A stretch of DNA of 36,075 nucleotides, taken from contig JAKUTK010000027.1 of NCBI GenBank assembly GCA_022448005.1, positions 25,628 through 61,702 on the forward strand, read 5' to 3'. A program made the position numbers and the translations under genes. The notes under the pieces were generated by a model. That model searched no databases. It saw only the letters and a program-made list of their open reading frames with translations, and was not told where the DNA came from. This DNA comes from Pseudomonas sp. GTDB taxonomy: Bacteria > Pseudomonadota > Gammaproteobacteria > Pseudomonadales > Pseudomonadaceae. Position 1 is the stretch's first letter; each line of letters opens with the position of its first letter. Positions 13,806 through 26,651 of this stretch are shown here, piece by piece.

Positions 13806-13901
13806 TGGCGGAAGGCAGTGGGAGTCGAACCCACCCAGGGACGGCTGCCGCCCCCAACCGGGTTTGAAGCCCGGCCGCACCACCGGGTGCGATTGCCTTC
13901 C
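13806..13901 (-). tRNA. selC: tRNA-Sec (anticodon TCA), intact copy at the phage left end
   Basis: Read on the minus strand, the 96-base gene begins GGAAGGCA and ends TGCCTTCC-G-CCA, giving the 8-bp acceptor stem typical of tRNA-Sec with an encoded CCA at 13808-13806. The anticodon TCA (complement of 13865-13867) sits in the loop CTTCAAA, flanked by a GGCCGGG/CCCGG-type stem. A long variable arm and a GGTTCGACTCC T-loop region follow. The 5' half (13863-13901) is identical to 24656-24694, so this copy is a host 3' half joined to a phage-borne 5' half. It lies 23 bp downstream of the integrase gene on the same strand; its pre-integration upstream sequence is now beyond 24694. Confidence 0.96.
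13863..13901. repeat. attL core (39-bp direct repeat, 5' half of tRNA-Sec)
   Basis: The 39 bases are identical to 24656-24694 and run from the anticodon loop to the 5' end of tRNA-Sec. The flanking bases differ on both sides (13862 G against 24655 A; 13902 T against 24695 A), which fixes the limits of identity. Crossover must lie inside this core, probably in the anticodon stem-loop. Confidence 0.93.
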
Positions 13902-13924
13902 TCCTTGATCTACAAAGAGTTTTT

Positions 13925-14950
13925 CTAGCTTAGCGGATGCTCCGACACGCGAGTGTCGAAGAAGTGTCGAAATTCCTTAGCGGGACCGAAAGCCAGCACG
14001 TCTTGCAGATGATCAGGCGCCAGGTGAGCGTAGCGCATAGTCATGGCCAATGACGAATGCCCCAGGATCTTCTGCAGGGTGAGGATGTTGCCTCCATTCG
14101 CGATGAAGTGTGACGCGAAGGTATGCCGTAGAACATGCGACTTCTGGCCTGCTGGCAGATTGAGGCCAGCACGAGCAACGGCCTCGTCAAATCGATCACG
14201 GCAATTGCTAAAGGCGCCATGTTCTCGAAGATGAGCACGAATGCGGTCCGCCAACTTCGGATCGATGGGCACGACACGCCGCCGCTTTGACTTGGTGTTC
14301 ACGAACTGGAGCGCTCCGTCTGCTACCCGGCTCACTGTCAGTCCCTGAGCCTCGCCCCATCGGCAACCTGTAACAAGGCAGATCATCGCAATCAGCTCGA
14401 CGTGTGGATGCCTCATGTTCCGCATCACACCGAATAGCTGATCGATCTGGCTGGTGTCGAGGTAGGACAATTCGCGCTCTTGCACTCGGATCGCACGGAG
14501 TAGGGCAAGCGGGTTCTCGTAGTCGATTTCACCGAGACGGCGTAGCTCATTGAACATAGCCCGCAGGTAGGACAGTTCGTTGTTCAAGGTCTTAGGGCTG
14601 ATGCCGGAATTGATGCGTTTGGCGCGGTACTCAGCGAAGTCGGTTGCTGTGAGGGTTATGGCGATAGGATTTTTGAGCCGTTCAACCATCCGATCCATGA
14701 TGACGCGACGTCCCGCATAGTCTGAGAGCGACCCACCGTGCAAGCGACCCCAGCAATCCACCAGTTCGGCCAGCCGACGACGATCTGTCGGTTTCGGTGA
14801 CCATTTCGGGCTTTCGATTAGCTTTGATCGGCATGTCGCCTCGAACCGTTGGGCTTCGCCCTTGGTCTTGAACGTTTTGCGGAACCGCTTGCCCTTGATC
14901 GGCTCTACATCGACCCGCCAGCGTCCGTCAGGCAGTGCAATGATTGCCAT
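13925..14950 (-). CDS. Tyrosine recombinase (phage integrase)
   Basis: The 341-residue integrase has an N-terminal arm-binding domain, a SAM-like core-binding domain and a catalytic domain. The catalytic residues are visible: Arg197 (TGCRWGEAQ), His272-x2-Arg275 (KSHVLRHTFA), His298 (LGHSSL) and Tyr307 (MRYAHL). I start it at the ATG at 14950, which shares one base with the Rep stop (TGATG), rather than six codons upstream; MAIIALPDGRWRVDVE is a typical integrase N-terminus. The stop is 23 bp before the 5' end of tRNA-Sec, so int transcripts should run into selC. Having int as the last gene after rep differs from a separately promoted integrase. Confidence 0.95.
   Translation of the reverse strand: MAIIALPDGRWRVDVEPIKGKRFRKTFKTKGEAQRFEATCRSKLIESPKWSPKPTDRRRLAELVDCWGRLHGGSLSDYAGRRVIMDRMVERLKNPIAITLTATDFAEYRAKRINSGISPKTLNNELSYLRAMFNELRRLGEIDYENPLALLRAIRVQERELSYLDTSQIDQLFGVMRNMRHPHVELIAMICLVTGCRWGEAQGLTVSRVADGALQFVNTKSKRRRVVPIDPKLADRIRAHLREHGAFSNCRDRFDEAVARAGLNLPAGQKSHVLRHTFASHFIANGGNILTLQKILGHSSLAMTMRYAHLAPDHLQDVLAFGPAKEFRHFFDTRVSEHPLS
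13952..13974. repeat. Putative integrase arm-site pair, left
   Basis: Two copies of AGTGTCGAA (13952-13960, 13963-13971) are spaced 11 bp apart, one helical turn. The 23-bp block matches 24541-24563 at 22 of 23 positions, near the other phage end and in the same orientation. It lies 50 bp inside the attL core and within the 3' end of the integrase coding region (residues FRHFFDT). Function as arm-type Int or Xis sites is inference. Confidence 0.6.
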
Positions 14951-16230
14951 CAGACAGCACGCCCCCATCGCACGTGGCGCTCCTGCAATAGGTTCTTGAT
15001 GTGGATGTACAGATCACGCTCCGTCATGTCTTTGGATGCGTAGTGATCGCGGATAACTGGCCAGCATTCCCACTCGCGCAACCGCTCAAACGCCTTTTTT
15101 GCGCCCACCCGCTCCCTTGCTAGCAGGCTTACGAAGTTTCCCAAGAACAGTTCCACGTTCTTGCCGGAGAAGCCTCGAGAGGTTTTGTAGTAGCGCTTGT
15201 ATTCCGTCTCATCGACCAGGGAGTCCACAGGTAGATCGACGCGGGCGTCTTCTCGCAGCAGCGTCCAGATCGGCTCGAAATAGCCAGGGCGGGCAAGCAA
15301 CTTGAATTGGCTCAGACCGTAGCGCCATAGCCCTTCCAGATGGGCCGAGAAGGTGTCGAAGGAGTCCGTGTCTATGGCTTGGCCGGTCTTCACGTCCACC
15401 GAGCCGCTGGCGAACTGCTGGATGACCGAATGGTGGTAACGCAGCTCGACGCGCCATACGTCCTGGGCTGGGTTGTAGTTCTCCGGGTCTGTCGCATCGA
15501 AGGAATCGCGGCGGCGCCAGACGCTTTCCCAGTAGTCGAGCTTGTCATGAGCGCGTGCCTGAAGGGTTTTGTTGTAGATCCCGAGCTGTACGCCACCGGC
15601 AGAGCCAAACAGAAAGGATTGGCCTTTGCCATAGGTCGCCGCTTCCATGGTCCACTGGATCTCTTTGATGCCCGAGATATCGCGGTTGGCACGTGCGCGA
15701 CAGTGCATGCGGGCCGTCAGGTCAGCCGGAGGCGTCCAGCCTTGCAGATCCAGGGCAAGGTGAACGGCACACTGGTTGCGTTCGCGATTGGTCATCACAG
15801 CTGCTGCGTAGTAATCCATCCGCTCTTGCAGGCGCTCAGGCGACAGCGCGTCGATCGCGTGCGGTGATACCTCGATTTTCAGGTGCGGGCCGATCTGCTC
15901 CAGCTTCGCGTTGAAGTTCTTGATGAGCAGAATGAATCCCAGGTCAGCGTTCTGCAGCTTGTACTGGTAGCCCGAATCACGGCCAACACGACCGGAATGC
16001 CAGATCTCACCGGCAAACTGGACCATTGCACCCGGTTTCTCAAACAGCGCCATGATCTCGGGGCGGATCAGGCCACGGTAGAGCTGGCGGACTGTATCGA
16101 CGCCGCAACGCAGCAACCGAATTTTCGACAGATCGGTGATCGCAGCAGTACCAGGATCAACGAACAACCGTCCGCGTTTGGTCGGGTTGCCCGTTATATG
16201 GTCCAGTCTTGCTTGGTCTTTAACGCTCAT
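14950..16230 (-). CDS. Inovirus replication initiation protein
   Basis: The 426-residue protein corresponds in position and content to the Rep protein of Pf-like inoviruses, which nicks the double-stranded form to start rolling-circle replication. Segments such as VQFAGEIWHSGRV, GVQLGIYNKT and DVWRVELRYHHSVIQQF resemble the phage replication-initiator (Phage_rep/Rep_trans-type) family. I use the ATG at 16230, eight codons inside the longest frame, because a GGGGA site lies 8 bp upstream. It is preceded by the palindrome-rich intergenic region and followed by int with a one-base overlap. Confidence 0.82.
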   Translation of the reverse strand: MSVKDQARLDHITGNPTKRGRLFVDPGTAAITDLSKIRLLRCGVDTVRQLYRGLIRPEIMALFEKPGAMVQFAGEIWHSGRVGRDSGYQYKLQNADLGFILLIKNFNAKLEQIGPHLKIEVSPHAIDALSPERLQERMDYYAAAVMTNRERNQCAVHLALDLQGWTPPADLTARMHCRARANRDISGIKEIQWTMEAATYGKGQSFLFGSAGGVQLGIYNKTLQARAHDKLDYWESVWRRRDSFDATDPENYNPAQDVWRVELRYHHSVIQQFASGSVDVKTGQAIDTDSFDTFSAHLEGLWRYGLSQFKLLARPGYFEPIWTLLREDARVDLPVDSLVDETEYKRYYKTSRGFSGKNVELFLGNFVSLLARERVGAKKAFERLREWECWPVIRDHYASKDMTERDLYIHIKNLLQERHVRWGRAV

Positions 16231-16361
16231 TCTTGAATCCCCAACAATGTCCACTAACGGACGGTTTCAACTGGTTTTATCTGACGTGCTACAGGGACGT
16301 CAGCGCGCGCAGCACGCCGGCTCGTACCTCGCCGTGCGTGCCAAGGACGCGCTGACGGTCT
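16231..16361. promoter_or_regulatory. Candidate phage replication origin
   Basis: This 131-bp gap between zot and rep is the only sizeable gap around the replication genes and is rich in nested inverted repeats. They are CTGACGT/ACGTCAG (16281-16287/16297-16303), CGTGCT/AGCACG (16285-16290/16311-16316) and CGTCAGCGCG/CGCGCTGACG (16298-16307/16348-16357). In Ff phages the origins and packaging hairpin also lie in the intergenic region beside the replication gene. Origin function is inferred. Confidence 0.55.
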
Positions 16362-17558
16362 TCACCACAGGAATTGCCCCTTCTCGTACGGCACGCGAGT
16401 GAAACGGGCCCTCTGGGTTTCGTTCTGGTCCTGGCGCGGTTGTGCTGCCAGCTGCGGAGCCGGTAGCTGGTTGTTTCGGTTCTGGTCCTGCATCGAGCCT
16501 CGGTCGGGCTTGGTCGGGTCGAAGTAGCCGTTCTGCACGACCGTCATGCAGAACTCGAACGACACCTCCAGCAACGTGCCTTGCTGGGTGTTGCAGCGGC
16601 AGCCGGTCAGCCCATCATCCGTATCGCCGATGCTCATTCGCCGTCGGTTGCGACTTATGAGGTCCCGGTCGGTCGTGGCGATGCAGACGGGCTTGGGGAA
16701 GGATTGCGGGGTGTTCAGCTGGTCATAGATCGGTGCTGAGCCGGGCACATCCTGAATCCGAGGCACACGCGACCCGAGGTACTGTTCGAGCGTTTGCGGC
16801 TGCTCTGCACCTTGCCCGCCGATGGGGTTGATGAAGGAGCCGACGACGCTTTTCGCCTGATCAACCATGCTTGCGGATTCAATCGGCGCGCCGATCTGGT
16901 CTGCTGCATCGGGCGCGGTCTTCTCTTGCTCATAGCGGGCATAAGCGCGATACACGAGAAACCCCGCCCCGATGATCACCGCCGCGGCCAACAGGAACTT
17001 GGTCGGCACCTTGGTCTGGAAGTGATGTTTGGCGTTCGTGCTGGTGTAGGCGCCGAAGTACTTCTTATCCAGGCGCAACGACTTCTTGTCCGCATCCTTG
17101 AAGCTGGATTTCACCTCAACTTTTTCCACCACCACTTCCGATTCGAAGCGCAGCAGTTGAGACGATTTAAAGACGCGCCAGTAGTGGATATGCGAGTTGC
17201 ACAGGCGGCGCAGGTGTACGTCGAGGTAGCGCGGGTCTTGGGTGACCAGATGCACTTCGTGGCCCTGGTGGCGCATGGTCTCGAAGCGGGTGATGTGTTC
17301 CGGTGGCCGCGCTCTTGGATCGCGTGAGCCAAACCAGCCTTGGGCCTCGTCGACCACGATGATCGCGTCGGCCGGCAGCTCGTACCACTTCTCAGGGTCA
17401 TCAAACACGAACCAGCTCGCCTTGAGCTGTTCGGGTTTGAGGCCGTTGATGTTGTGGTAATAGACGACGCGCCCTTGGGCATGGGCGCTCTGGTCGACTT
17501 CGCGGATGGTGTTGAGGGTCTTGCCGTGCCCCGGCTTACCCGTGCGGATAATGAGCAT
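16362..17558 (-). CDS. Zot/pI-like assembly ATPase
   Basis: The 398-residue protein is the inovirus morphogenesis protein pI (Zot family), an inner-membrane ATPase that extrudes the virion. It has a Walker A motif GKPGHGKT (residues 7-14), a Walker B IIVVDEA (66-72) followed by QGWFGSRDPR, and one membrane segment FLLAAAVIIGAGFLVYRAY (about 188-206), leaving about 190 residues in the periplasm. The ATG at 17558 is chosen because MLIIRTGKPGHGKT is the canonical N-terminus; it lies 4 bp after the stop of the pVI-like gene. Confidence 0.95.
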   Translation of the reverse strand: MLIIRTGKPGHGKTLNTIREVDQSAHAQGRVVYYHNINGLKPEQLKASWFVFDDPEKWYELPADAIIVVDEAQGWFGSRDPRARPPEHITRFETMRHQGHEVHLVTQDPRYLDVHLRRLCNSHIHYWRVFKSSQLLRFESEVVVEKVEVKSSFKDADKKSLRLDKKYFGAYTSTNAKHHFQTKVPTKFLLAAAVIIGAGFLVYRAYARYEQEKTAPDAADQIGAPIESASMVDQAKSVVGSFINPIGGQGAEQPQTLEQYLGSRVPRIQDVPGSAPIYDQLNTPQSFPKPVCIATTDRDLISRNRRRMSIGDTDDGLTGCRCNTQQGTLLEVSFEFCMTVVQNGYFDPTKPDRGSMQDQNRNNQLPAPQLAAQPRQDQNETQRARFTRVPYEKGQFLW

Positions 17559-17562
17559 GGCA

Positions 17563-17877
17563 TCAGGCCGTGAAGGTGGTGACGTTGCCGAGCTTGGTGC
17601 GGCGATCGGCAAGCTTGTCGATGCCGGTCAGCACCATCCGAGTAGTGATGGCGGCGAAGTACATGTTCAGCGCGACATCGATCTTTGCCAGCCCCAAGAC
17701 CATTTGAATCGACTGGGCGACGTTGCCCATGTTGGCGAGCATGTAGTCCTTCGCCTGGCCAATCACGAAGTTGATACCTAAGTAGCTGACCATGCCGATG
17801 CCAAGCACCCGGAGGACCATCATTACCAGCGGTTTGACGATCATTACGGCGAGTACAGCGAGGTAGTAGAAATGCAT
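17563..17877 (-). CDS. pVI-like minor coat protein (DUF2523-type)
   Basis: The 104-residue protein is strongly hydrophobic: MHFYYLAVLAVMIVKPLVMMVLRVLG, then a second segment and an amphipathic end. Size, hydropathy and position between the pIII-like gene and zot match the inovirus DUF2523/pVI protein that ends the virion with pIII. The ATG at 17877 overlaps the stop of the upstream gene by one base (TGATG). The longer frame upstream is only the shadow of the pIII C-terminus. Confidence 0.85.
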   Translation of the reverse strand: MHFYYLAVLAVMIVKPLVMMVLRVLGIGMVSYLGINFVIGQAKDYMLANMGNVAQSIQMVLGLAKIDVALNMYFAAITTRMVLTGIDKLADRRTKLGNVTTFTA

Positions 17878-19280
17878 CAGGCACCTCCAAAGGCGCGGCC
17901 CACGTAGACGGCGCAGAACATTGCGGTGAAGGCCACGATCAGCCAGGACATGTCCGTGGCCGCCTGGCACAGGGGTTCGTACTTGATTTGCAGGGTGCGG
18001 CCACCGTTGGAACGGAGGCTCATGCTCTCGGGCGAGGGGCAACCGGCAGGCAGGAAGCGACCGGCGCTGTTGATGAAGCTGGGCGCGTTGACCTCGGCTT
18101 CTTTCAGCTCGAACTGTTCGCCCTGGAATAGCCCTTCGATATCGCTCTTCTTCTTATCGAAATCGGCCTGTTCTTCGGCGTGGCAACGCAGCTCTTTTTG
18201 CTGCTTGAGGATGGCGCACTGGACGGCATCGCCTTCGCAGGTAAGCGCAGCGGTGCAGACTTCACCGCCCACCGATGAAGTGGGTTCTTCTTCCTCGGGA
18301 TCGCCTTCATCCCCCGAGCCGTTGCCATCCCCATCGCCGCTTCCATCGCCATCACCCGAGCCATCACCATCGCCGTCTCCACTGCCGTCACCGGAACCAT
18401 CCCCCGAGCCATCACCGGAACCGCCACCACCGCCCGAGCCGCCACCACCAGAACCATCGCCGGGATCAGTGGGATCAGTGGGATCGGTTGGATCTGTTGG
18501 GTCGGTCGGGTCCGTGGGATCTGTAGGATCGGTGGGATCAGGCGGCAATGAGCAGAAGGTGCCATTCCAGACATAGCCGGTCGGGCAGTTGTTGTCGGGA
18601 TCTGGTGGCGGTGTGTCGTCAGGATCCTGCGTATCGCCTTGAGTTGGATTGCCGGGGGCCTGATAAGGCGACTCACCGCCCGTGCATTGCAGCCCCGCGC
18701 TTTTGTAGGTGTAAACACCAAACACACCGGCAGGCGAACCGCTTTTATAGGCGTAGACGTTCGAAGGGGCGGTAAAGGAAAAAGCGTAAGCGCAGGAGTT
18801 AGCGCAGATGGATCCAGGCGGGTCGATGGTCGGCTGACCGACTGCCGACTTCATCAGATGTTCATGCGTGGTTTCCGCGCCGTTCAGGTGCTCGCACGGG
18901 TTCGGCTCAGGATCAGGAGGGCCGGGCACACACCCACCCGTCGATGGGTCATATACGTTGCCCGCCCCGCATGAATCACCACCGCGATAAATTATATAGG
19001 TGCTGACGTTCGTGTCTGATGGCTGCGATGCATTTCGGCAACGCGCTTCGGATTCACTAACAAACGTAACGACGTTCGTCATATGGGTGTCCATAGGACG
19101 CCAGGAGGGAATGGCAAAACCTCTTTTATAGTGCTGGCAGACAGCTTCGGGGCTTGGGAACTGCTCGTTGTAACCGTTTCGAAACCAGTAATAGTCAGCT
19201 GAAAAAGCCGTGCTGGATGCAGCTGAAAAGAGAAGCCCAACCAGCAAGCTGCGCAAGAACAAAACAAGCTTCCGGTTCAT
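17877..19280 (-). CDS. pIII-like adsorption protein
   Basis: The 467-residue protein has a signal peptide (MNRKLVLFLRSLLVGLLF, probable cleavage after AFSA) and a Cys-rich N-terminal receptor-binding part up to about residue 240. It continues with eight DPT tripeptides (about 247-272), a long Gly/Ser/Asp linker (about 273-330), a second Cys-containing domain and a C-terminal membrane anchor (MSWLIVAFTAMFCAVYVG). This is the architecture of filamentous-phage pIII, which binds pili and then the Tol system. The ATG at 19280 is set by the signal peptide. Sequence of the N-domain is likely phage- and host-specific. Confidence 0.9.
   Translation of the reverse strand: MNRKLVLFLRSLLVGLLFSAASSTAFSADYYWFRNGYNEQFPSPEAVCQHYKRGFAIPSWRPMDTHMTNVVTFVSESEARCRNASQPSDTNVSTYIIYRGGDSCGAGNVYDPSTGGCVPGPPDPEPNPCEHLNGAETTHEHLMKSAVGQPTIDPPGSICANSCAYAFSFTAPSNVYAYKSGSPAGVFGVYTYKSAGLQCTGGESPYQAPGNPTQGDTQDPDDTPPPDPDNNCPTGYVWNGTFCSLPPDPTDPTDPTDPTDPTDPTDPTDPTDPGDGSGGGGSGGGGGSGDGSGDGSGDGSGDGDGDGSGDGDGSGDGDGNGSGDEGDPEEEEPTSSVGGEVCTAALTCEGDAVQCAILKQQKELRCHAEEQADFDKKKSDIEGLFQGEQFELKEAEVNAPSFINSAGRFLPAGCPSPESMSLRSNGGRTLQIKYEPLCQAATDMSWLIVAFTAMFCAVYVGRAFGGA
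18464..18540. repeat. 9-bp tandem repeat coding DPT units in pIII
   Basis: About eight tandem 9-bp units of the type GGATCAGTG (plus strand), with third-base variation, encode Asp-Pro-Thr repeats in the pIII linker. Next to it (18289-18463) lies a Gly/Ser/Asp low-complexity tract. Unit number could vary by slippage. Confidence 0.85.
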
Positions 19281-19282
19281 CT

Positions 19283-19354
19283 CTACACCCGCCCAAAAAA
19301 CACGAGATAGAACGCCAGGGTGGTCAGGATCAGGACGTACAGTTGGTAGCTCAT
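19283..19354 (-). CDS. 23-residue membrane peptide, candidate minor tip coat protein
   Basis: A complete small frame runs ATG at 19354 to TAG at 19283: 23 residues, MSYQLYVLILTTLAFYLVFF ending GRV. It is almost entirely one membrane segment with a basic end, the style of the Ff tip proteins pVII (33 aa) and pIX (32 aa). A GAGGGA ribosome site lies 6 bp before the ATG. It is between the terminator after the major coat gene and the pIII-like gene, and its stop is 2 bp before the pIII start, so the two are probably coupled. Function is inferred from size, hydropathy and place. Confidence 0.72.
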   Translation of the reverse strand: MSYQLYVLILTTLAFYLVFFGRV

Positions 19355-19373
19355 TGGCGTTCCCTCGGAAGTG

Positions 19374-19397
19374 AAAAACCCCGCCGGAGCGGGGTTT
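19374..19397 (-). terminator. Intrinsic terminator after the major coat gene
   Basis: A 9-bp stem (AAACCCCGC/GCGGGGTTT, 19376-19397) with a 4-base loop is followed on the minus strand by a run of five Ts. It sits 34 bp after the coat gene, where filamentous phages place the strong central terminator that keeps coat transcripts abundant and downstream structural genes low. Confidence 0.9.
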
Positions 19398-19431
19398 GTT
19401 TGCTTCGGCACGTGCGGTGCGCAACCCCGGC

Positions 19432-19641
19432 TTACAGGGCGCGGCGCATGTACTTGAACGCCATCGCGGCGATGATCACGGCGAAGACGGCCCAGCCGAT
19501 GGTGCCGACATCGGTGCCAGCCTCATCGAGTGCGCCGGTCGCTTCCGGGGGAACGGCTGCGTAGACGGTGCCAGCCAGGGTGGAGAGCGCGGCAGCAGCG
19601 CCAACGCCGATTTTCTTGATGAAGTGCTTGTTCAGTTGCAT
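19432..19641 (-). CDS. Major coat protein (pVIII-like)
   Basis: The 69-residue precursor has a basic start (MQLNKHFIKK), a hydrophobic signal ending TVYA, and a mature part of about 40 residues. That part has an acidic head (EATGALDEAGTD), a membrane helix (GWAVFAVIIAAMAF) and a basic tail (KYMRRAL) that would contact DNA. This is the classical inovirus major coat layout. It is followed by an intrinsic terminator and preceded by a small membrane protein gene. Confidence 0.93.
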   Translation of the reverse strand: MQLNKHFIKKIGVGAAAALSTLAGTVYAAVPPEATGALDEAGTDVGTIGWAVFAVIIAAMAFKYMRRAL

Positions 19642-19651
19642 GGGTGATACC

Positions 19652-19867
19652 TCACTGTTTCAGGACTTTTTTGAGGACCAGAAAACCGAACACGGTGGCA
19701 AAGAGCACGATGGCTTCTGCCTGGAGTTCGGAGACCTGTTCCCAGGACAGTGCAGCGCCGTAGAGGCTCTGCATTTCCTCGACCGTGAGGGCAACCAGCG
19801 ACCCGGAGCAGACGGGCGTACCGTCAGCGCCTTGCAGCCAGTCACCGTCACAGGCGAGGAAATTCAT
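19652..19867 (-). CDS. Small inovirus membrane protein
   Basis: The 71-residue protein has an N-terminal part with two cysteines (CDGDWLQG and PVCSGSL), an amphipathic helix (TVEEMQSLYGAALSWEQVSELQ) and a C-terminal membrane helix with a basic end (AIVLFATVFGFLVLKKVLKQ). It overlaps the upstream zinc-ribbon gene by ATGA and ends 10 bp before the coat gene. Proteins of this kind precede the coat gene in Pf-like phages; a minor virion role is likely but not shown. Confidence 0.75.
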   Translation of the reverse strand: MNFLACDGDWLQGADGTPVCSGSLVALTVEEMQSLYGAALSWEQVSELQAEAIVLFATVFGFLVLKKVLKQ

Positions 19868-20043
19868 GCACCGGCCTCGATGAGATCGGCGGCTTGTTCG
19901 AGGGGTTCGCAGTCGGGGCAGACGGCGAAATGAGGCGGCAACCGCAGATCGGGCAGCAGATCGCTTTGCGGTGCAGGTAGGCTCATGAGCTTGCCCATGT
20001 CGTTGCCGCAGCAGTCGCAGATAACGCGGTCACCCATCAGCAT
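19864..20043 (-). CDS. 59-residue zinc-ribbon-like protein
   Basis: A complete small frame starts at the ATG at 20043 and ends TGA at 19864. Two Cys pairs, VICDCCGND near residues 8-16 and VCPDC near residues 42-46, suggest a small zinc ribbon. A GGGGAGGGG ribosome site precedes it, and the stop overlaps the next ATG (ATGA). It lies between the ssDNA-binding and membrane protein genes, so it is part of the phage operon. Its function is unknown; a regulatory or DNA/RNA-binding role is possible. Confidence 0.75.
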   Translation of the reverse strand: MLMGDRVICDCCGNDMGKLMSLPAPQSDLLPDLRLPPHFAVCPDCEPLEQAADLIEAGA

Positions 20044-20058
20044 GGTCCGCCCCTCCCC

Positions 20059-20421
20059 TTAGTTGGCTTTGGCCGGGTCGGCTGGCTTGGCCGGGTTCGG
20101 CTGGGCAGCGGCACGGGATGGTTCGGTGGTGTTGCGTGGCTTCACGGCTTCGAGTTGCAGGGCTAGGTTCTTGCCCTTGTTCTGGCCACCACGGGCAATC
20201 TCGAAGTGGATGCGCACCAGTTGCAGCGGCTCGAAGTGGGCACCGGCTGCGAAGATTTCATCGGCTACTTCGTCCGCTGCTGCCATGCCGATGATGGAAA
20301 GGCCGTGTTCGGTCTTGCCGTCTGGTTCGTCGCCGTAGAAGACCTTGATGTACTTCTGGCCCGCTTCACCGTCGAAGCGTTGAGTGCCGAGAAATGCAAC
20401 TTCCATAGTCGAACGTGCCAT
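20059..20421 (-). CDS. Single-stranded DNA-binding protein (pV-like)
   Basis: The 120-residue protein occupies the gene V position. A beta-rich core with FLGTQRFDGEAGQKYIKVFYGDE is followed by an acidic region and a Pro/Ala/Lys-rich tail (EPSRAAAQPNPAKPADPAK), like Pf-type ssDNA-binding proteins that coat the single-stranded genome before assembly. An AGAGAGGAAA ribosome site precedes the ATG. The call relies on position, size and the low-complexity tail; direct homology is not proven. Confidence 0.7.
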   Translation of the reverse strand: MARSTMEVAFLGTQRFDGEAGQKYIKVFYGDEPDGKTEHGLSIIGMAAADEVADEIFAAGAHFEPLQLVRIHFEIARGGQNKGKNLALQLEAVKPRNTTEPSRAAAQPNPAKPADPAKAN

Positions 20422-20540
20422 CTGTTTTTCCTCTCTCTAGTTGCGCTTAATTGCGCTGCTTTGCTTTCTGCAGGCCGAGCGATCCCAAGCAGGCGAACTT
20501 TCAAAAATCGCCACTGCTGGTTTGTTACTTGGCCTACTGG

Positions 20541-20942
20541 TTAAAACTTCGCGTTGCGGTTGCCTGTTAGTTGGTTAACACCAAGGGCTTTGCCCTTGTC
20601 ATCCCACTCTTGCCGCCGAGGGCTCGGGAGCGCGGGGCGGAGAAGCTGCCCCACACTCACGAGCGAAGGCTTTTCTGTTTGTGCAGGGTCAAGGGTGCGC
20701 TCCGCCCGTGCTTCCGTTCGCCGGATCGGTGAAGCGTGATCCGACGAGCCGGGAGCGCGGCCCTGGACCTGTTCAGCCTCGGTGTCGGTTGTTGCCGCGG
20801 GAACGCTGTCGGGCTTGGTTCCGTCGCGGTGCTCGCTGATCTTCATCGCCAACCAGGGGAAGCCGAAGATCACCACCGCGAGCAATGCGATGGGCAGATA
20901 GACACGCCAGAAGAAGTCAGCGTGTGGGTCTTGATTAGCCAC
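20541..20942 (-). CDS. Phage membrane protein with disordered tail
   Basis: The 133-residue protein begins at a GTG (20942) with GGAGG 8 bp upstream. Residues about 11-33 ([23 protein letters not shown]) are one membrane segment; the remaining 100 residues are polar, rich in Pro, Ala and charged residues, and probably disordered. It follows the Cys-rich gene by 3 bp. Similar small membrane proteins occur in this operon position in Pf-like phages. I do not recognise a function. Confidence 0.65.
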
Positions 20943-20945
20943 GGC

Positions 20946-21281
20946 TTAGGCCTCCAGCTCGAACGGTTCGTGGATCGGCACGTAGGGCGTGGGTTTGCCG
21001 GTATCGAACACAACGCTCCAATACTTCGGCGGTCGGGCGGGTGGCGTGTGTTTCTCGCAGGTAGAGGCCGGTATCACCGCCCATTCCGAGGCGAGGACTG
21101 TCCAGACACCAGCGATCTTGCCCATCCTTATTGTGCGAATCGGCTGCACAGACGCGGGGCGGCATTGGGCGCAGGGTGTGGACCGGGAGCGAACGGGTTT
21201 CGCCACTTCGCGACCGGACCAGCAGACAGAGCAGCCGCAGTCCTCGGGGTGCGGCAGGCGCATATAGGTCGACAAGCTCAT
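20946..21281 (-). CDS. Cys-rich phage protein of unknown function
   Basis: The 111-residue protein has several Cys pairs (CGCSVC near residue 15, CAQC near 37, and one CEKH near 74), suggesting metal binding. GAGGGG lies 7 bp before the ATG at 21281, and the stop is 3 bp before the next gene. A second frame open from 21324 overlaps it. Its first 16 codons begin with an ATGA overlap with the upstream gene, but the rest has the look of a shadow. I therefore prefer the Cys-rich frame. Confidence 0.6.
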   Translation of the reverse strand: MSLSTYMRLPHPEDCGCSVCWSGREVAKPVRSRSTPCAQCRPASVQPIRTIRMGKIAGVWTVLASEWAVIPASTCEKHTPPARPPKYWSVVFDTGKPTPYVPIHEPFELEA

Positions 21282-21320
21282 ACGTCATCCCCTCGGCTGG
21301 CTTTCCGTAGGCGGCGCGGA

Positions 21321-21536
21321 TCATGTGTCCCACTCCTTTTCCATGAGCTGCTTGGTCAAGAGCACCACGTTGACCATCACGTATTTGCCGACCTTGTGAG
21401 ACGGGATGTAGCCGTTGCGAATCCAGCCCCACACCACGTCGTGTTCGTCTGCCATGCGTATCCAGTCCGCGAACTGACGCCACGGCATCACTGGCGGCGC
21501 GTTGTGTAGGTCTATCGGCGGTAGGTTTCCTTCCAT
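21321..21536 (-). CDS. Excisionase-like DNA-binding protein
   Basis: The 71-residue protein has a MerR/excisionase-like winged-helix pattern: MPWRQFADWIRMADEHDVVWGWIRNGYIPSHKVGKYVMVNVVLLTKQL. It is the first gene of the minus-strand phage operon, directly below the operator region and divergent from the repressor. That is where Pf phages place their small Xis/activator protein. It probably promotes excision and/or activates the operon; this is inferred from context. Confidence 0.75.
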   Translation of the reverse strand: MEGNLPPIDLHNAPPVMPWRQFADWIRMADEHDVVWGWIRNGYIPSHKVGKYVMVNVVLLTKQLMEKEWDT

Positions 21537-21651
21537 GTCCTTGGCCTTTGTTGCACTATGTTGGTCTTTATTAGCAGAGCTAATGCTTGCGTAACATTTA
21601 CTCTTGCGTAAAAGTTACACCTCTTTTGGCCATGCGTAAATGTTACGCATC
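21537..21651. promoter_or_regulatory. Phage switch region with three 17-bp operators
   Basis: Three copies of TGCGTAA-N3-TTAcgca lie here: 21588-21604 (TGCGTAACATTTACTCT), 21605-21621 (TGCGTAAAAGTTACACC) and 21633-21649. The third is a perfect palindrome within ATGCGTAAATGTTACGCAT (21632-21650). The first two abut and the third is 11 bp further. A plausible plus-strand promoter uses TTGCGT (21587) and TAAAAG (21609). On the minus strand TTACGC and TAATAA lie close together. The repressor would thus cover both divergent promoters. Confidence 0.72.
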
Positions 21652-21936
21652 ATGAATTGTTTCTATATGGATTCAGTCCGAGATAGAGCGCTTCGATTGA
21701 TACGGGTTATCGGTCCGAAGCGGCTGAGCGAGAAGGGCGGCAAGAACTACGACCGCTGGCGAAACATCAGCAGCGAAAAAATACGTATTGGGACGGAAGA
21801 GATCGGCATCCTTGCAGACTCCTTTCCGGAGTACGCGCTTTGGCTCGTCAGTGGTCGGGTCGAGCCGGAACATGGGCACCGAAGCCCCGAATACGACGAG
21901 GCCAACCGAAACTTGCCCAGTCAAAGCGCGGGATAG
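21652..21936 (+). CDS. Phage repressor-like HTH protein
   Basis: The protein of about 94 residues has a helix-turn-helix-like pattern RDRALRLIRVIGPKRLSEKGGKNYDRWRNISSEKIRIGTEEIGILADSFPEYALWLVSG, seen in small phage and plasmid regulators. It is transcribed away from the excisionase-like gene and lies just past three palindromic sites, so it is the likely lysogeny repressor (C/Pf-r-like). The start could be 21652 or 21667. An ATG at 21640 is less likely because it lies in the third operator. Confidence 0.72.
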   Translation: MNCFYMDSVRDRALRLIRVIGPKRLSEKGGKNYDRWRNISSEKIRIGTEEIGILADSFPEYALWLVSGRVEPEHGHRSPEYDEANRNLPSQSAG

Positions 21937-21994
21937 CGATCACAACGGAAGTGACTAGGCGCTGGTACGCCCGAAGGACAGGGAAGGGAAGGGA

Positions 21995-22666
21995 ATGAAA
22001 GCTAATAGGGACGACATGCCAGAGTATCTACGCCCCAGAAAAAAAGCCGGTCCGTGGCGCTTTTTAGCGTTGCTCGGAATAGGCTCCGCAATTTTCTGGG
22101 TGCTGTCGGTGATGTTCGGCAAGCAAATTGTCATTGACATCGATCAGATTAAGAACGCAATCAGGTTCACGGACAAGCCCGTATTCATATCCGAGCCTGA
22201 ACCCTTGCAGGCGCCACTCTATACAGAGCGGCAAGGCAACGCCCATCGCAAAGCGGCTGCGCTTGCTGAGATGCTTGAAAGATCTTCTGAGGAACAACCG
22301 GCTGTCCGGCAAACGTCCTTCAACGCTCAGAACTATCAGCCAACCGGCGCGATTAACACTATGCCGGCCCCAAAGCCGACGCTATACGCGTCGACTGCAA
22401 AAGCGCAGCGGGTGCAGCACAAGCCAGTATTACAGACCGGCTATTGGACCTGGACGGGCGCAGATAGGAAGAAGACTCGACACAAGATCCAATGGCAAAC
22501 AATAAACGGCTGGATTGAATACCACACCGTCTGCCAGAACGAGCGACGTGGATCACTCGAATATCGAGATTGCCGGAAAGCTGCCAAACAATACTTCGTA
22601 CATCGCTGCCGAACCGAGAAGCGTAAGGCCTTCTGTGCCGCTGAGAATAATTACAATCCGCTATGA
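21995..22666 (+). CDS. Single-pass membrane protein, phage cargo
   Basis: The 223-residue protein has a basic cytoplasmic N-terminus (RPRKKAGPWR), a membrane segment at about residues 24-43 (LALLGIGSAIFWVLSVMFG), a long polar linker, and a C-terminal domain of about 75 residues. That domain is rich in basic and aromatic residues, with four cysteines (CQNERRGSLEYRDC, then HRC and FCAAEN) that could form disulfides in the periplasm. A purine-rich GGGAAGGGA lies before the ATG. It is the first of three plus-strand genes beyond the repressor. I do not recognise the family. Confidence 0.68.
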   Translation: MKANRDDMPEYLRPRKKAGPWRFLALLGIGSAIFWVLSVMFGKQIVIDIDQIKNAIRFTDKPVFISEPEPLQAPLYTERQGNAHRKAAALAEMLERSSEEQPAVRQTSFNAQNYQPTGAINTMPAPKPTLYASTAKAQRVQHKPVLQTGYWTWTGADRKKTRHKIQWQTINGWIEYHTVCQNERRGSLEYRDCRKAAKQYFVHRCRTEKRKAFCAAENNYNPL

Positions 22667-22704
22667 GTTTGCGGTGTCAGGGTATCCCGTAAGCTTAGGA
22701 AGAG

Positions 22705-23424
22705 ATGATGATTGTTAATCCCCAAGGAAAAAGCTTCTTTCTAGGTTACTTAATTTCGAAAGTTAATGAGAACCGTTTTTTCTTAGAGATGGTAGTCGAT
22801 GGGTGCGATGACGGCGAAAGAAACTATCGAAAAGGATTAACCTCAAATGAGGCGCCATACAATCAAGTCGTATATGGATTCTCGGCGCTGGGTAACACAA
22901 TTCAGTCGATAAAAGATTGCTCTAATGAAATGCTGCTTAGCAAGATTACGTGGGGAGACATAAAAAATCTTAAGTGCGGTAGGTTTATGTATGGCGCGCG
23001 AAATGCCATGACCCACGATGGAAACCCAGTAGTCAATTGCTGCATTAATGGTAAGTGTTATGCGGGTCTGGACATTGAGCGTATTTACGATGGCAAAATA
23101 ATCAAAATAGAAAGGCCGAGCGAAGATATAAAGCATGTTTGCTTATCTTTCGTAAAGGAGTTTAGTAATCTGCTCCTAAAGCGTTTTTCAGATGCTTTTA
23201 AAGAGGTAAAAATTCGGGGAGAATTGAATATCGATATGATCGAGCAAGCCCTACACCACCCTATGTCGCGGGGGCTCGACAGTATAGTTTTAGACCAATT
23301 AAAAGCCGAGCTATTAGCACAGAAAGACGTGATCGAAGAAAAGGTTGGTCAGACAAAAATGGATGAGTTGATTAAAATCCTTCATTCTCTAAAGGGCTAC
23401 TGCGAAGACCGGTTGACAGCATAG
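22705..23424 (+). CDS. HEPN-motif protein, candidate defence or toxin gene
   Basis: The 239-residue protein contains R99-N-A-M-T-H104 within FMYGARNAMTHDGN, matching the R-x4-6-H catalytic motif of HEPN ribonucleases. Helices precede it (YGFSALGNTIQSIKD) and follow it (VCLSFVKEFSNLLLKRFSDAF), as in HEPN four-helix bundles. The C-terminal 70 residues are helical and charged. Codon and base use is visibly AT-rich compared with the phage core and host, indicating recent acquisition. The start may be 22705 or the next codon, 22708, after an AGGA. Anti-phage or toxin function is inferred; no partner antitoxin is obvious. Confidence 0.7.
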   Translation: MMIVNPQGKSFFLGYLISKVNENRFFLEMVVDGCDDGERNYRKGLTSNEAPYNQVVYGFSALGNTIQSIKDCSNEMLLSKITWGDIKNLKCGRFMYGARNAMTHDGNPVVNCCINGKCYAGLDIERIYDGKIIKIERPSEDIKHVCLSFVKEFSNLLLKRFSDAFKEVKIRGELNIDMIEQALHHPMSRGLDSIVLDQLKAELLAQKDVIEEKVGQTKMDELIKILHSLKGYCEDRLTA

Positions 23425-23659
23425 CTAGTATTGTGGGGTTTTATGCGCTAGCTGCTACCAGCTTCCATGCCCTTATTTCTGGTATTAAATAGTTGGCTTG
23501 TACTTTAATCGGAGTGCTGGATGGATCTTTCGGCTTTATCATGGTTTGGAATCCGCGCTGTCTCACTCAATTGTCCACGTTTTTTTCAACTGAGTTCCCA
23601 TAGCTATCAATACCTACACTTGAAGTGCGCTATATAATGAGCTTTAGAGGTGACTCAAT
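23425..23659 (+). promoter_or_regulatory. AT-rich gap with TATAAT before the putAbiC-like gene
   Basis: This 235-bp gap holds no gene I can support. TATAAT at 23633-23638 lies 22 bp before the TTG start of the following gene, without a good -35 box at 17 bp. A separate promoter for the downstream gene is therefore possible but weakly supported. Confidence 0.4.
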
Positions 23660-24514
23660 TTGAAGAAGTATATTGAGCTGATTGCATCCTTATTCGCAGT
23701 ATTGCTATTTTTTGCTGCAGTTATCCCATATCTCGTTAATTTTGGGGAAGGTTTAAGCAAAAGTAATGAGGTTTGGGGGCAGTTCGGTGACTATCTGGGT
23801 GGAAGTTTAAACCCAGTATTCGGTTTTTTGACGTTGCTAGTTGTTTTATATAACACCCGGATACAGAGGGATGAGATAGAAAATAACAAGCATATGATGC
23901 TGGAACATACCGCAATGCTTAGTAAACAGTTGGAGCTTACTGAGCAAAAGGCGATAGAGGAATTCACCTTTCAACTTCTAGAAGAGGCGCGTACTGATGA
24001 GGCCGTGCAAAAAGCAAGGGCTAAGGAAGCTGAAACTCTAATAGGTATTTTCATACTTCATATGGCAAGAGATGGTCAATATGAACAGCTGATCGATAAG
24101 TATGATGAAAGAGCCGAATTAGCTAATATACATTTTAAAAAGTTTGTCGGTATCGAGTTTGGTGAGTTTAGCCACATTGTGTATCCAAAGATTTTAGCTT
24201 TAGTTGCCTGTGTGAATAAACTGCCAAGCCAAAATAGAATTTTTATGACGAACCTAATTAAGTCTAGATTCGGGATGGCCGTAGTGGCAGCTGCAGTTCA
24301 ATTGTCTGTGGCTAATGAACGAGAAAAAGAATACAGCGAATTCAAGAAGCTCAGCCCGATCCTTCATGGTGCTGGTGATTACTTGATATTTTCTGAGAGA
24401 GTTTGCAAAGATCTATGTGATTGGCTTACACCAGAAGAAATACGATATAACACAACGAAATCACGCGCTATATTGGCTAACCAGTTTATGAGCCGACAAC
24501 CGACGCCGGACTAA
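23660..24514 (+). CDS. putAbiC-like membrane protein (putative phage abortive infection)
   Basis: The 284-residue protein begins at TTG with AGAGG 9 bp upstream. It has two N-terminal membrane segments (about residues 8-27 and 50-66) joined by a loop with WGQFGDYLGGSLNPVFGFLTLL. That pattern, G-x-FGD-x-LGG-x2-NP before the second helix, resembles the 'putative phage abortive infection protein' (putAbiC) family. A helical, coiled-coil-prone segment (about 72-120) and a soluble helical C-terminal domain follow. It is AT-rich like the HEPN-type gene before it and is the last gene before attR. Defence function is inferred from family resemblance. Confidence 0.72.
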   Translation: MKKYIELIASLFAVLLFFAAVIPYLVNFGEGLSKSNEVWGQFGDYLGGSLNPVFGFLTLLVVLYNTRIQRDEIENNKHMMLEHTAMLSKQLELTEQKAIEEFTFQLLEEARTDEAVQKARAKEAETLIGIFILHMARDGQYEQLIDKYDERAELANIHFKKFVGIEFGEFSHIVYPKILALVACVNKLPSQNRIFMTNLIKSRFGMAVVAAAVQLSVANEREKEYSEFKKLSPILHGAGDYLIFSERVCKDLCDWLTPEEIRYNTTKSRAILANQFMSRQPTPD

Positions 24515-24540
24515 GACTAGCGACATAGGATCTTAGATTT

Positions 24541-24563
24541 AGTGTCGAAAAAGTGTCGAAATT
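24541..24563. repeat. Putative integrase arm-site pair, right
   Basis: Two AGTGTCGAA copies (24541-24549, 24552-24560) with 11-bp spacing match the left block at 13952-13974 in 22 of 23 bases. They lie 92 bp inside the attR core. In one frame the complement reads FRHFFDT, the same peptide as the integrase C-terminus. The block could therefore be either an arm site or a remnant of another integrase 3' end. Confidence 0.55.
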
Positions 24564-24655
24564 AAAGACCAGCATAGGCCTACGTTGTCCGAGATATAAA
24601 AGTCACGCCCAGTACTAGCCAACATAGACCATCAATTGTCAAAGCGACGACAGGA

Positions 24656-24694
24656 TTTGAAGCCCGGCCGCACCACCGGGTGCGATTGCCTTCC
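24656..24694 (-). repeat. attR core: orphan 5' half of tRNA-Sec behind selB
   Basis: These 39 bases equal 13863-13901 and form only the 5' half of tRNA-Sec, ending in the anticodon loop. The 5' end (24694) is 40 bp from the selB stop, so before integration selC was immediately downstream of selB on the same strand. Beyond the anticodon loop the sequence is phage DNA, so this copy cannot fold as a tRNA. Confidence 0.93.
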
Positions 24695-24734: not shown

Positions 24735-26651
24735 CTAACTGACCTCATCCTCTGAGGCCAAGGCGCTGTCTCGTCGCACCTTGCGTTCGTTGCCGAAGCG
24801 GCGGGTGAAGCCGATTCGGTCAAAATGTTCGAGCAGCTGGATGCTGCGTTTGCGGCCGAGCTGGATCTGGTCGCGGAAGGCTGCGGCGCGGATGACGCCG
24901 CTCTGACGTTCCATCTCCAGAACCTGGCTGGCCAGCAGGCGGATGGTCTGCTCGGGATAGAAGAGGTCTTTCACTACCTGTTGCAGCGCGCCAAGGCGAG
25001 CCAGCTTGCGCAACAGCTGGCGGACCTGCTCTTCCTCGACGTCCAGCTCACGGGCGATGTGGCGCACCCAGGGTGGGTTGAAGGGGCTGGCGGCAAGCAG
25101 GGGCCAGAGCCGGGCTTTCAGCGCCTCTTCCTCGTCGGTCAGGCGTACCCGGTGACCAGGCAGGTGCAGCCAGGGGCCACTGGCTTCGATCTTGCCATCG
25201 GCCAGTGCCTGCTCCAGCAAGGCGATGAAGATAGGGCGCTCCAGTAACGGCAGAGCGTATCGGCGCAGGCGGTCGCGATCCGGGCCGAGCTCGTCCGGCT
25301 GGCTGTCATGAAAGCGCTGCAGGGCGGCCACCAGGCTCTTGCCGAGGTAGTCCCAGGTGCCGCGTTCGAACAGTCTCGGGCCGAGCCGCGTGGTGATCTC
25401 CAGCGCTTCGTCTGGAAGCAGCCAGGTTTTCCGGGGCCGGTTGAACTGCCGTTCCAGCAAGGCCGGATCGAGGCCGTTGAGGGCACTGGGCAGCAGCCCT
25501 GGCAACACATTTTCCAATGTATCTCCGGCGAGCGCTCGCAGCACCGCTAGGCGTGCCTGACGATGACGGTTGCGGGGCGGCGCAAAAGGGTCGAGTACGC
25601 GGCCGCCGCCGAGGGTGCGCTGCGCGGACTGGTCGCGCAGGACCACACGGTCGCCATGCACCGCATGGGCGGGCGCATTGAGCAGCAGCTGCGCGTGCAC
25701 GTGGCCACCGGGCGCCAGGCATTCGCCTTCGAGCAGGGCGATGCGGCCGGTGACATCCTGGGCGCCGAGGTGGATGTGCACCGGCGTCCAGTGGCGCAAT
25801 TCGCGGGCTTCGCTGGCTAACAGCGTGAATTCGATATCGATGCGCTGGGTGCCATCCTGCAGCTCGGGCGTTACCAGCCAATCGCCGCGGCTGATATCAC
25901 CGACTGAAAGCCGCTCGCCGCTGAGATTGAGGGCGACGCGCTGGCCCGCCTGAGCCGCCTGGGCTGTCTGGTTCTGCGCATGCAGCCCGCGGACGCGAAC
26001 CTTGCGGCCGGACGGCCCCAGGCTCAGTTCGTCCCCCACCTGGGTTCGGCCAGCGATGGCGGTACCGGTTACGACCACGCCTGCGCCGGTCACGCTAAAT
26101 GCCCGGTCAATGGACAGGCGAAAATGTCCGTCTTCACGGCGCGCCTGCACTTCGGTCGCCTGTTCGAGCAAGCGGGCGCGAAGCGCGTCGATGCCTTCGC
26201 CGGACACGCTGGACACGGGAAAAATCGGCGCACCGGACAGCGGCCCAGCTTCCAGCAGGGCTTCTACCTGCCGCTGGACTTCGGCGATGCGCGATGGCTC
26301 GACCCGGTCGATTTTCGTCAGCGCCACCAGCGCCCGGCGAATCCCAAGCAGCTCGACGATGGCCAGGTGCTCGCGGGTCTGCGGCATTACGCCGTCGTCT
26401 GCGGCGACGACCAGCAGCACGCAGTCGATACCGCCGGCGCCGGCGAGCATGTTGTGCACGAAGCGTTCATGACCGGGGACGTCGATGAAGCCGGTCAGGT
26501 CGGGCTCACCCAGCGAGGCGTAGAGGTAGCCGAGGTCGATGGTGATGCCGCGCAAGCGTTCTTCCTGACGGCGGTCGCCGGCCTGCCCGGTCAATGCCTG
26601 GAGCAGGGCGGTTTTGCCGTGGTCGATGTGCCCCGCGGTGCCGATGATCAT
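24735..26651 (-). CDS. selB: Selenocysteine-specific translation elongation factor SelB
   Basis: The 638-residue GTPase delivers Sec-tRNA to UGA codons bearing a SECIS element. It has the EF-Tu-like G1 motif GHIDHGKT (residues 7-14), G3 DVPGHERF, G4 TKID, beta-barrel domains and C-terminal winged-helix repeats (for example [33 protein letters not shown]) that bind the SECIS RNA. Its ATG overlaps the selA stop (ATGA). It is intact and full length. Its natural downstream neighbour selC is now about 10.8 kb away. Confidence 0.97.

What the first reader, a model, noticed from the sequence alone, without database searches (positions are those of the whole stretch)
13863..24694. Inovirus integrated through the 5' half of selC, taking over the upstream region of tRNA-Sec
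The 39-bp att repeat runs from the tRNA 5' end to the anticodon loop. Most tRNA-targeting phages instead carry the 3' half and leave the host promoter side intact. Here the complete tRNA-Sec (13806-13901) has phage DNA upstream, with the integrase stop only 23 bp before its 5' end on the same strand, and no good promoter is visible in that gap. Expression of the host's tRNA-Sec, and hence selenoprotein synthesis, may now depend on phage rep-int transcription or on a phage-borne promoter. A prophage that owns selC expression would be a form of dependence not usually described for inoviruses.
Basis: partly seen in the sequence, partly recalled or inferred. Interest (0 to 1): 0.87.

Follow-up and report, generated by a model that had tools for sequence, protein, structure and literature searches.

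The report
Filamentous phage replacing a tRNA's promoter
A bacterial filamentous virus has inserted itself into the front half of the host's only selenocysteine tRNA gene, rebuilding the gene but cutting it off from the DNA that normally lies in front of it, and relatives of this virus, alive or decayed, have done the same in about half of the surveyed species of this bacterial genus.

Summary
A 10.8-kb Pf-like inovirus sits in the single selC of a Stutzerimonas genome through a 39-bp repeat running from the tRNA 5' end to the anticodon loop. A close empty site (L144) shows selA-selB-40 bp-selC. Insertion puts int 23 bp upstream of selC and selB 10.8 kb away, so selC is almost certainly transcribed from phage DNA (inference).

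It is a family trait. Sister integrase clades attack opposite ends of tRNA-Sec: one converges on the 3' end (including P. aeruginosa Pf8), one uses the 5' end. Of 53 selC-bearing Stutzerimonas genomes, 24 keep the native upstream region, 9 have intact 5'-type prophages, 18 decayed ones, 2 are unclear. Decayed cases keep selC, so permanent dependence on an active phage is not supported.

An element TGnTAGCnT in the int 3' end, marked by a rare Leu codon (44 of 52 int genes) and kept in several old remnants, is a candidate phage-borne selC promoter. The window's own int lacks its key A, and promoter scores do not beat shuffles, so the promoter is unproven. Precedents exist: 4% of islands in one database leave a 5' tRNA fragment, and archaeal pTN3 separates a tRNA from its promoter.

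The parts
13806..13901 (-). rebuilt tRNA-Sec (selC), anticodon TCA; the 39 nt at its 5' end lie in the att core, the 3' 57 nt are host-only
13863..13901 (-). att core copy 1 (in the complete tRNA), 39 bp, tRNA 5' end to anticodon loop
24656..24694 (-). att core copy 2: displaced 5' half of tRNA-Sec, 40 bp after the selB stop
13902..13924 (-). 23-bp phage-derived gap between int stop and tRNA 5' end; no promoter-like or terminator-like match
13925..14968 (-). tyrosine integrase (Phage_integrase, Int_N), up to 347 aa; co-directional with selC
13952..13974 (.). paired repeats GTGTCGAA inside the int 3' end, probably integrase arm sites
   Evidence: role inferred
24541..24563 (.). the matching pair of GTGTCGAA repeats at the other prophage end
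   Evidence: role inferred
13985..14002 (-). codons D-V-L-A-F-G of int (GACGTGCTGGCTTTCGGT): place of the candidate extended -10 (TGnTAGCnT in most relatives, TGCTGGCTT here)
   Evidence: coordinates read
14950..16254 (-). replication-initiation-type protein (PHROG 1159); overlaps int by 19 bp
   Evidence: function by synteny with Pf8
16362..17576 (-). Zot-like assembly ATPase
17572..17878 (-). small protein in the place of the Pf head virion protein; no family match
   Evidence: place by synteny
17877..19280 (-). coat protein A / adsorption-type protein with Gly-Asp-Ser-rich linker
   Evidence: place by synteny
19432..19641 (-). major coat protein
   Evidence: phrog_7106
20059..20421 (-). probable ssDNA-binding protein by position; PHROG 15465 (unknown function)
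   Evidence: synteny with Pf8
21321..21536 (-). small protein in the place of the excisionase (PHROG 1864, unknown function)
   Evidence: synteny
21640..21936 (+). transcriptional regulator, probable phage repressor, divergent from the leftward operon
   Evidence: phrog_147
21995..24514 (+). three cargo ORFs (21995-22666, 22705-23424, 23660-24514) of unknown function
24735..26651 (-). selB; TTGGCC-N18-TAGGCT across its stop codon is the candidate native selC promoter, now 10.8 kb from selC
   Evidence: the same site in L144; gene name from recall
26648..28057 (-). selA
   Evidence: named from recall of the gene order and sequence; used as query

Best explanation
A Pf-like inovirus with a tRNA-Sec-specific tyrosine integrase recombines attP with the anticodon-loop region of selC. 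Its attP carries the 5' 39 nt of the tRNA and not the usual 3' part, so integration rebuilds an intact tRNA but replaces everything upstream of it. The native arrangement selA-selB-selC, with a conserved promoter-like element across the selB stop codon, becomes rep-int-selC. SHOWN: structure, empty site, single copy, recurrence in a defined integrase clade, and presence of selC after the prophage decays. INFERRED: crossover in the anticodon loop; selC is transcribed from phage DNA, by read-through from rep-int or from a weak promoter in the int 3' end. In many relatives that promoter is marked by TGnTAGCnT about 95 nt upstream of the tRNA. After the prophage decays, hosts keep or re-evolve a promoter from the leftover DNA.
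For: Structure and empty site. Native arrangement: selB stop 32-51 bp from selC and TAG in 24 of 24 native sites; TAGnnT in 23 of 24; best matrix hit in 160 bp at this site in 22 of 24. Family trait: 44 of 79 distinct relatives of int end next to the tRNA-Sec 5' half; Sec5 and Sec3 integrases form two supported groups (100/97 and 98/94) within one tRNA-Sec clade (99/96; midpoint root). Takeover frequency: 27 of 53, plus G026, broken at the repeat. Sec use kept: 53 of 56 genomes have formate dehydrogenase over the cut-off, with in-frame TGA in every such row listed. Candidate phage promoter: the Leu codon of the element is TTA/CTA in 44 of 52 int genes, while the next of 33 conserved Leu columns reaches 25%; a 12-mer of the element is found, with at most one mismatch, in 6 of 20 decayed groups, 0-0.05 expected in base shuffles. 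Where selB and selC are separated and no 5' half lies next to selB, the host hexamer reads TAGCCC, TAGCCG, TAGCCC, TAGGCC and TGACGT in five of six loci.
Against: Promoter scores of the last 140 bp are no better than dinucleotide shuffles: intact prophages median p 0.93 (n 9), decayed or unclear loci Fisher p 0.39 (n 28), native sites Fisher p 0.07 (14 of the 24); the matrix was recalled from memory. The window's own int has CTG, so its element is TGCTGGCTT. The tRNA-proximal block AGGAAAATCCTTTGTAAATCAAT is kept in more groups (up to 9 of 20) than the TGnTAGC element. The sixth locus (L149) keeps TAGGGT, and the native site L146 has TAGGCC. The host hexamer is still TAGnnT in the intact lysogens and remnants that keep a 5' half next to selB (L142, with an altered selB end, excepted), so its erosion rests on a few old loci. 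Decayed groups are not all independent. No transcript data exist here.
Confidence: 0.78

Rival explanations
1. selC in the lysogen is expressed only by read-through of the rep-int transcript, so tRNA-Sec level follows phage operon activity and is low under repression.
For: rep and int overlap by 19 bp and selC follows 23 bp later with no minus-strand terminator-like site between int and selC. The window lacks the TGnTAGCnT element. selC also follows selB closely, roughly 10 to 80 bp, in other genera of the family.
Against: The 18 decayed loci show no full-length rep or int but keep selC, and the genus keeps the Sec dehydrogenase. A rare-codon constraint in the int 3' end needs another reason.
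Confidence: 0.35
2. The conserved TTA/CTA codon and the blocks kept in remnants are recombination sites (Int arm, Xis or IHF binding), not a promoter; remnants keep them only because they are young.
For: The nearby repeats TTTTCGACACTTCTTCGACAC are shared with the 3'-type integrase L124 and so are probably arm sites. The proximal block is kept mostly in remnants still alignable to int.
Against: Groups A and B, L148, L150 and L215 keep TGnTAG while the arm repeats are lost or decayed. None of the 8 3'-type integrases has a TA codon at this place, although their protein differs there too.
Confidence: 0.3
3. Ordinary tRNA-targeted prophage with no consequence: selC is expressed adequately from whatever DNA lies upstream.
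For: Upstream regions of selC turn over widely in the family with selC retained. Promoter scores of native sites are also weak.
Against: TAGnnT at the selB stop is conserved in 23 of 24 native sites although the bases downstream vary.
Confidence: 0.3

Closest known systems
Pf-tRNA-Sec prophages of P. aeruginosa (PMC7549136, passages seen) and Pf8 (MN710383)
   Same: Pf-like inoviruses, same target gene; the Pf8 integrase is 66% identical and lies in the same tRNA-Sec clade
   Different: Published att is the 3' 27 bp of tRNA-Sec, and in Pf8 int converges on the tRNA. Here the 5' 39 bp is used and int reads into the tRNA, so the promoter side is replaced.
Genomic islands with 5' tDNA fragments (Islander, PMC4383910, passages seen)
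   Same: Island upstream of the rebuilt tDNA with a displaced 5' fragment; 159 of 3919 islands
   Different: The word promoter does not occur in that paper's main text; whether its list holds an inovirus at selC was not checked
pTN3-like archaeal elements (PMC8371274 and PMC5495485, passages seen)
   Same: About 41 bp of the 5' half of a tRNA up to the anticodon; rebuilt tRNA separated from its original promoter, said to be expressed from the integrase promoter
   Different: Archaeal element whose integrase gene is disrupted on integration; here int stays whole
tRNA-dependent lysogeny (PMC10865867, abstract and passages seen)
   Same: Host tRNA supply becomes tied to a prophage
   Different: There the att core does not rebuild the tRNA and the phage carries a whole tRNA gene; here the host gene is rebuilt
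SXT/R391 ICE in prfC (PMC2786100, passages seen)
   Same: Integration at the 5' end of a host gene
   Different: Protein gene, ICE. That SXT supplies a new promoter for prfC is recalled, not seen in a call.

Membership tests
Pf-like inovirus (Primolicivirus-like) | Zot-type assembly ATPase | tested here: met
   PF05707, 4.1e-19; phrog_197
Pf-like inovirus (Primolicivirus-like) | coat - adsorption - small protein - Zot - rep - int gene order | tested here: met
   phrog_7106, phrog_4352, phrog_197, phrog_1159 and int in the order of Pf8
Pf-like inovirus (Primolicivirus-like) | filamentous ssDNA virion | not testable with these tools
   sequence only
Pf-tRNA-Sec group of P. aeruginosa | attachment through the 3' 27 bp of tRNA-Sec | tested here: not met
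   att is the 5' 39 bp; 27-bp 3' site in PMC7549136
Pf-tRNA-Sec group of P. aeruginosa | integrase of the same group as Pf8 (Sec3) | tested here: not met
   window int lies in the Sec5 group
Islands with 5' tDNA fragment | displaced 5' fragment upstream of and co-oriented with the intact tDNA, integrase inside | tested here: met
pTN3-like integration | 5' half of a tRNA as att, tRNA rebuilt apart from its native upstream DNA | tested here: met
pTN3-like integration | integrase gene disrupted on integration | tested here: not met
   int is one open frame
tRNA-dependent lysogeny | att core too short to rebuild the tRNA; separate phage tRNA gene | tested here: not met
   tRNA rebuilt over a 39-bp core; only one tRNA in the window

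The most novel reading that the evidence does not exclude
One lineage of inovirus integrases flipped from the 3' to the 5' end of tRNA-Sec and has since repeatedly swapped the promoter of selC across Stutzerimonas and some other genera of its family. The 3' end of the phage int gene doubles as the selC promoter (rare-codon-marked TGnTAGCnT), and after the phage decays the host keeps that fragment as its own selC promoter while the old promoter at the selB stop erodes.
Probability: 0.4. Interest if true: 0.78.

Novelty: new variant of a known kind. Interest (0 to 1): 0.62.

Why it matters
It gives a natural, replicated experiment on promoter replacement of a single-copy tRNA: native, lysogen and decayed-prophage states of the same gene in 53 related genomes, one per species. 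If the int 3' end is a promoter, a phage gene end serves three roles at once (coding, probable Int arm sites, host tRNA promoter). Selenoprotein synthesis would then depend on viral or formerly viral DNA in about half of the surveyed species of this genus. It also shows one integrase clade using both ends of the same tRNA gene.

Tried and rejected
Second selC in the genome: rejected; one match over the cut-off, nine weaker ones below it.

Lasting dependence on an active phage: rejected by 18 decayed cases with selC kept.

Strong consensus promoter in the gap or the int 3' end: the simple scan found none; matrix hits were not better than shuffles. That matrix was recalled from memory.

Genome without selC but with a Sec dehydrogenase (G026) as a failure case: rejected. 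Its selC is cut by a contig end inside the att repeat, with the 5' half beside selB. G009 and G025 gave no selB match.

Sec dehydrogenase in the window: none found. The long ORF at 7425-10337 runs 970 aa by the standard code, and the one formate dehydrogenase over the cut-off is on another contig.

Acceptor-stem symmetry as the cause of the polarity flip (both tRNA ends read GGAAGGCA facing int): noted, not tested.
Full report
WHAT IS THERE. The window lies in a 4.99-Mb genome that I take for Stutzerimonas: contigs of its genus-mates have the lengths of named Stutzerimonas contigs (for example G027:C21 and NZ_JAOEIY010000008.1, 207,253 bases). tRNA-Sec is at 13806-13901 on the minus strand and is the only match over the cut-off in the genome. 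A 39-bp exact repeat, 13863-13901 and 24656-24694, spans the tRNA from its 5' end to the end of the anticodon loop. Between the copies lies a Pf-like inovirus: integrase and Zot-like ATPase, a PHROG 1159 protein, coat proteins, a divergent regulator and three cargo ORFs. The order matches Pf8.

EMPTY SITE. L144, from a genus-mate whose selB is 98% identical, aligns to both flanks, and both window repeats fall on its single copy. The insert is therefore 10,793 bp and exact. In L144 the selB stop is 40 bases before the tRNA. In the window int is the upstream co-directional gene, with 23 bp between its stop and the tRNA, and selB is 10.8 kb away. Transcription of selC therefore very probably starts in phage DNA; otherwise a host transcript would have to cross the whole prophage, including genes on the opposite strand. 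This is inference; no RNA data were available.

NATIVE ARRANGEMENT. I searched 56 genus genomes; 53 have selC, and I fetched up to 20 kb around it in the 52 other than the window. By script, 25 were classed as empty, 9 as intact 5'-type, 14 as remnants with a tRNA 5' half, and 5 as other. On inspection of the tails I moved L148 from empty to decayed and counted L150, L153 and L179 as decayed; L149 and L156 remain unclear. Totals: 24 native, 9 intact, 18 decayed, 2 unclear, of 53. Two of the 24 native-upstream genomes (L143, L182) carry a 3'-type integrase on the other side. G026, scored as lacking selC, has it cut by a contig end inside the repeat, with the 5' half next to selB, and would be a further case. 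In all 24 native sites the selB stop is TAG, 32-51 bp from the tRNA; with the next three bases it reads TAGnnT in 23 of 24 (L146 is TAGGCC). The best hit of my sigma-70 matrix (recalled from memory) in 160 bp is this site in 22 of 24, usually TTGGCn-N18-TAGGCT. The -35-like part overlaps conserved selB codons, so only the part at the stop is independent evidence. In six loci selB and selC are separated and no 5' half lies next to selB: L148, L153, L174, L179 and L156 read TAGCCC, TAGCCG, TAGCCC, TAGGCC and TGACGT, and L149 reads TAGGGT. In L142 the selB end is altered. Intact lysogens and the other remnants with selB in view still read TAGnnT there (in L161 after an earlier TAA).

A CLADE WITH TWO POLARITIES. 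Of 79 distinct int genes in the loci held, 44 end beside the tRNA-Sec 5' half, 8 face the 3' end of tRNA-Sec, and 27 are other or cut off by contig ends. A tree of 40 integrases puts the tRNA-Sec integrases in one clade (99/96) with two groups: Sec3 (9 rows, 98/94) and Sec5 (16 rows, 100/97: 14 labelled Sec5, one whose stop lies farther from the tRNA, and L110 with another site) (root at midpoint). P. aeruginosa Pf8 is Sec3: its tRNA-Sec is annotated convergent with int. The published Pf-tRNA-Sec att site is the 3' 27 bp (PMC7549136, passages seen). L123 and L125, outside the tRNA-Sec clade, face a tRNA-Ser convergently at short distance, so the 5' polarity is probably derived. Some contigs have selC between a 5'-type and a 3'-type integrase: L134 (same genome as L009, L075 and L104) and viral contigs L043, L046, L049, L050, L061 and L066.

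IS THERE A PHAGE PROMOTER? Three lines speak for an element in the int 3' end about 95 nt upstream of the tRNA, and several results against. For: (1) in 52 distinct 5'-type int genes (including some on contigs cut before the tRNA, taken in by identity over 78%) the Leu of D-V-L-A-F is TTA (38) or CTA (6), 85%; the next highest of 33 conserved Leu columns is 25%. TTA and CTA are 2.6% and 4.7% of all Leu codons in the 44 genes, this site included. With the preceding GTG the codon makes TGnTAGCnT, an extended -10. (2) A 12-mer of this element is found with at most one mismatch in 6 of 20 groups (A = L147/171/172, B = L173/175/181, L157, L148, L150, L215), 0-0.05 expected in base shuffles. L141 and L174, young remnants, were left out of the 20; L149 and L156 and eight groups from other genera were included. 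L137/L139 carry TGTTACCCT and L237 TGCTAGGTT. (3) In A, B, L148 and L150 a TTGCCA, CTGCCA, CTGTCA or CTGTCG lies 19 nt upstream, where intact L154 has TCGCCA. Against: scores are not better than dinucleotide shuffles for decayed or unclear loci (Fisher p 0.39, n 28, related loci included), intact prophages (median p 0.93, n 9) or native sites (Fisher p 0.07, 14 of 24). The window itself, L020, L145, L022 and L197 have CTG, and L117 TTG, at that codon. A block next to the tRNA (AGGAAAATCCTTTGTAAATCAAT) is kept in up to 9 of 20 groups, more than the TGnTAGC element, often in remnants still alignable to int. I conclude that a promoter in the int end is likely for the TTA/CTA phages and undecided for this window.

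DOES THE HOST DEPEND ON THE PHAGE? In the integrated state selC very probably uses phage DNA. But the 18 decayed loci show no full-length rep or int match and keep selC. The Sec-type formate dehydrogenase is over its cut-off in 53 of 56 genomes, with in-frame TGA in every such row listed. Of the other three, G009 and G025 gave no selB match and G019 is 73% complete with only a partial hit. The window genome has one such gene with one TGA. Hosts therefore tolerate loss of the phage genes, and precise excision would restore selB-selC. Capture of the upstream region, not addiction, is the better description.

BEYOND THE GENUS. In 398 family genomes, 224 have selC. I looked at 40 further loci and 22 others (L183 has no bases upstream of the tRNA, and L111 and L197 are the same place). 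In several genera selB ends roughly 10-80 bp before selC (for example L184-L193, L223, L226-L231). In others (many of g9, some of g12) selC is farther, up to several kb, from selB, or selB is not in the stretch, often with int-like tails such as L208, L213, L219-L222 and L224. These were read by eye and not counted.

KNOWN OR NEW. 5' tDNA fragments are 159 of 3919 islands in Islander (PMC4383910, passages). A review states that bacterial tRNA genes keep their original promoter with very few exceptions, and that pTN3-like elements use the 5' half with the tRNA expressed from the integrase promoter (PMC8371274, passages). The pTN3 paper says the rebuilt tRNA is separated from its original promoter (PMC5495485, passages). 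tRNA-dependent lysogeny is different (PMC10865867, abstract and passages). My searches for inovirus/Stutzerimonas/selC cases listed no paper that I recognised as reporting a 5'-half selC inovirus; I judged by titles and abstract starts, and most subscription papers are not in that library. I file it as a new variant of a known kind.

On review I corrected the distance in L144 (40 bp), the coordinates of the D-V-L-A-F-G codons, a list of int-like tails, and wording on what remnants lack.

Noticed in passing
L134 (= L009), L043, L046, L049, L050, L061, L066: selC lies between a 5'-type and a 3'-type inovirus integrase, so both flanks of the tRNA appear phage-derived.
   Followed up: partly
L110 (G127), downstream of the integrase: A member of the Sec5 integrase group whose gene ends next to a different sequence, not tRNA-Sec: apparent change of target site.
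   Followed up: no
L137, L139, L141, L142, L147, L157, L158, L171-L175: Remnants share about 0.3-0.6 kb with intact prophages near the phage regulator region and show no rep or Zot match, with int absent or partial; they may still give immunity.
   Followed up: partly
L199, L203-L207, L209-L212, L216 (genus g9): selC upstream regions share a piece resembling the int codons for MANGGNIL (GGCAACATCC), possibly an older takeover.
   Followed up: no
window 18301-18444: Repeats of mostly 12-base spacing in the adsorption-type protein gene, encoding a Gly/Asp/Ser-rich linker.
   Followed up: no
L161, selB 3' end: selB ends a few codons early (TAA) in this lysogen while TAGGCT is still present downstream.
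   Followed up: no
window 22705-24514: Two cargo ORFs without Pfam or PADLOC match; the second has weak PHROG matches of unknown function (the first was not in that search).
   Followed up: partly
L166: selA matches in two overlapping pieces, perhaps a frameshift or assembly error.
   Followed up: no
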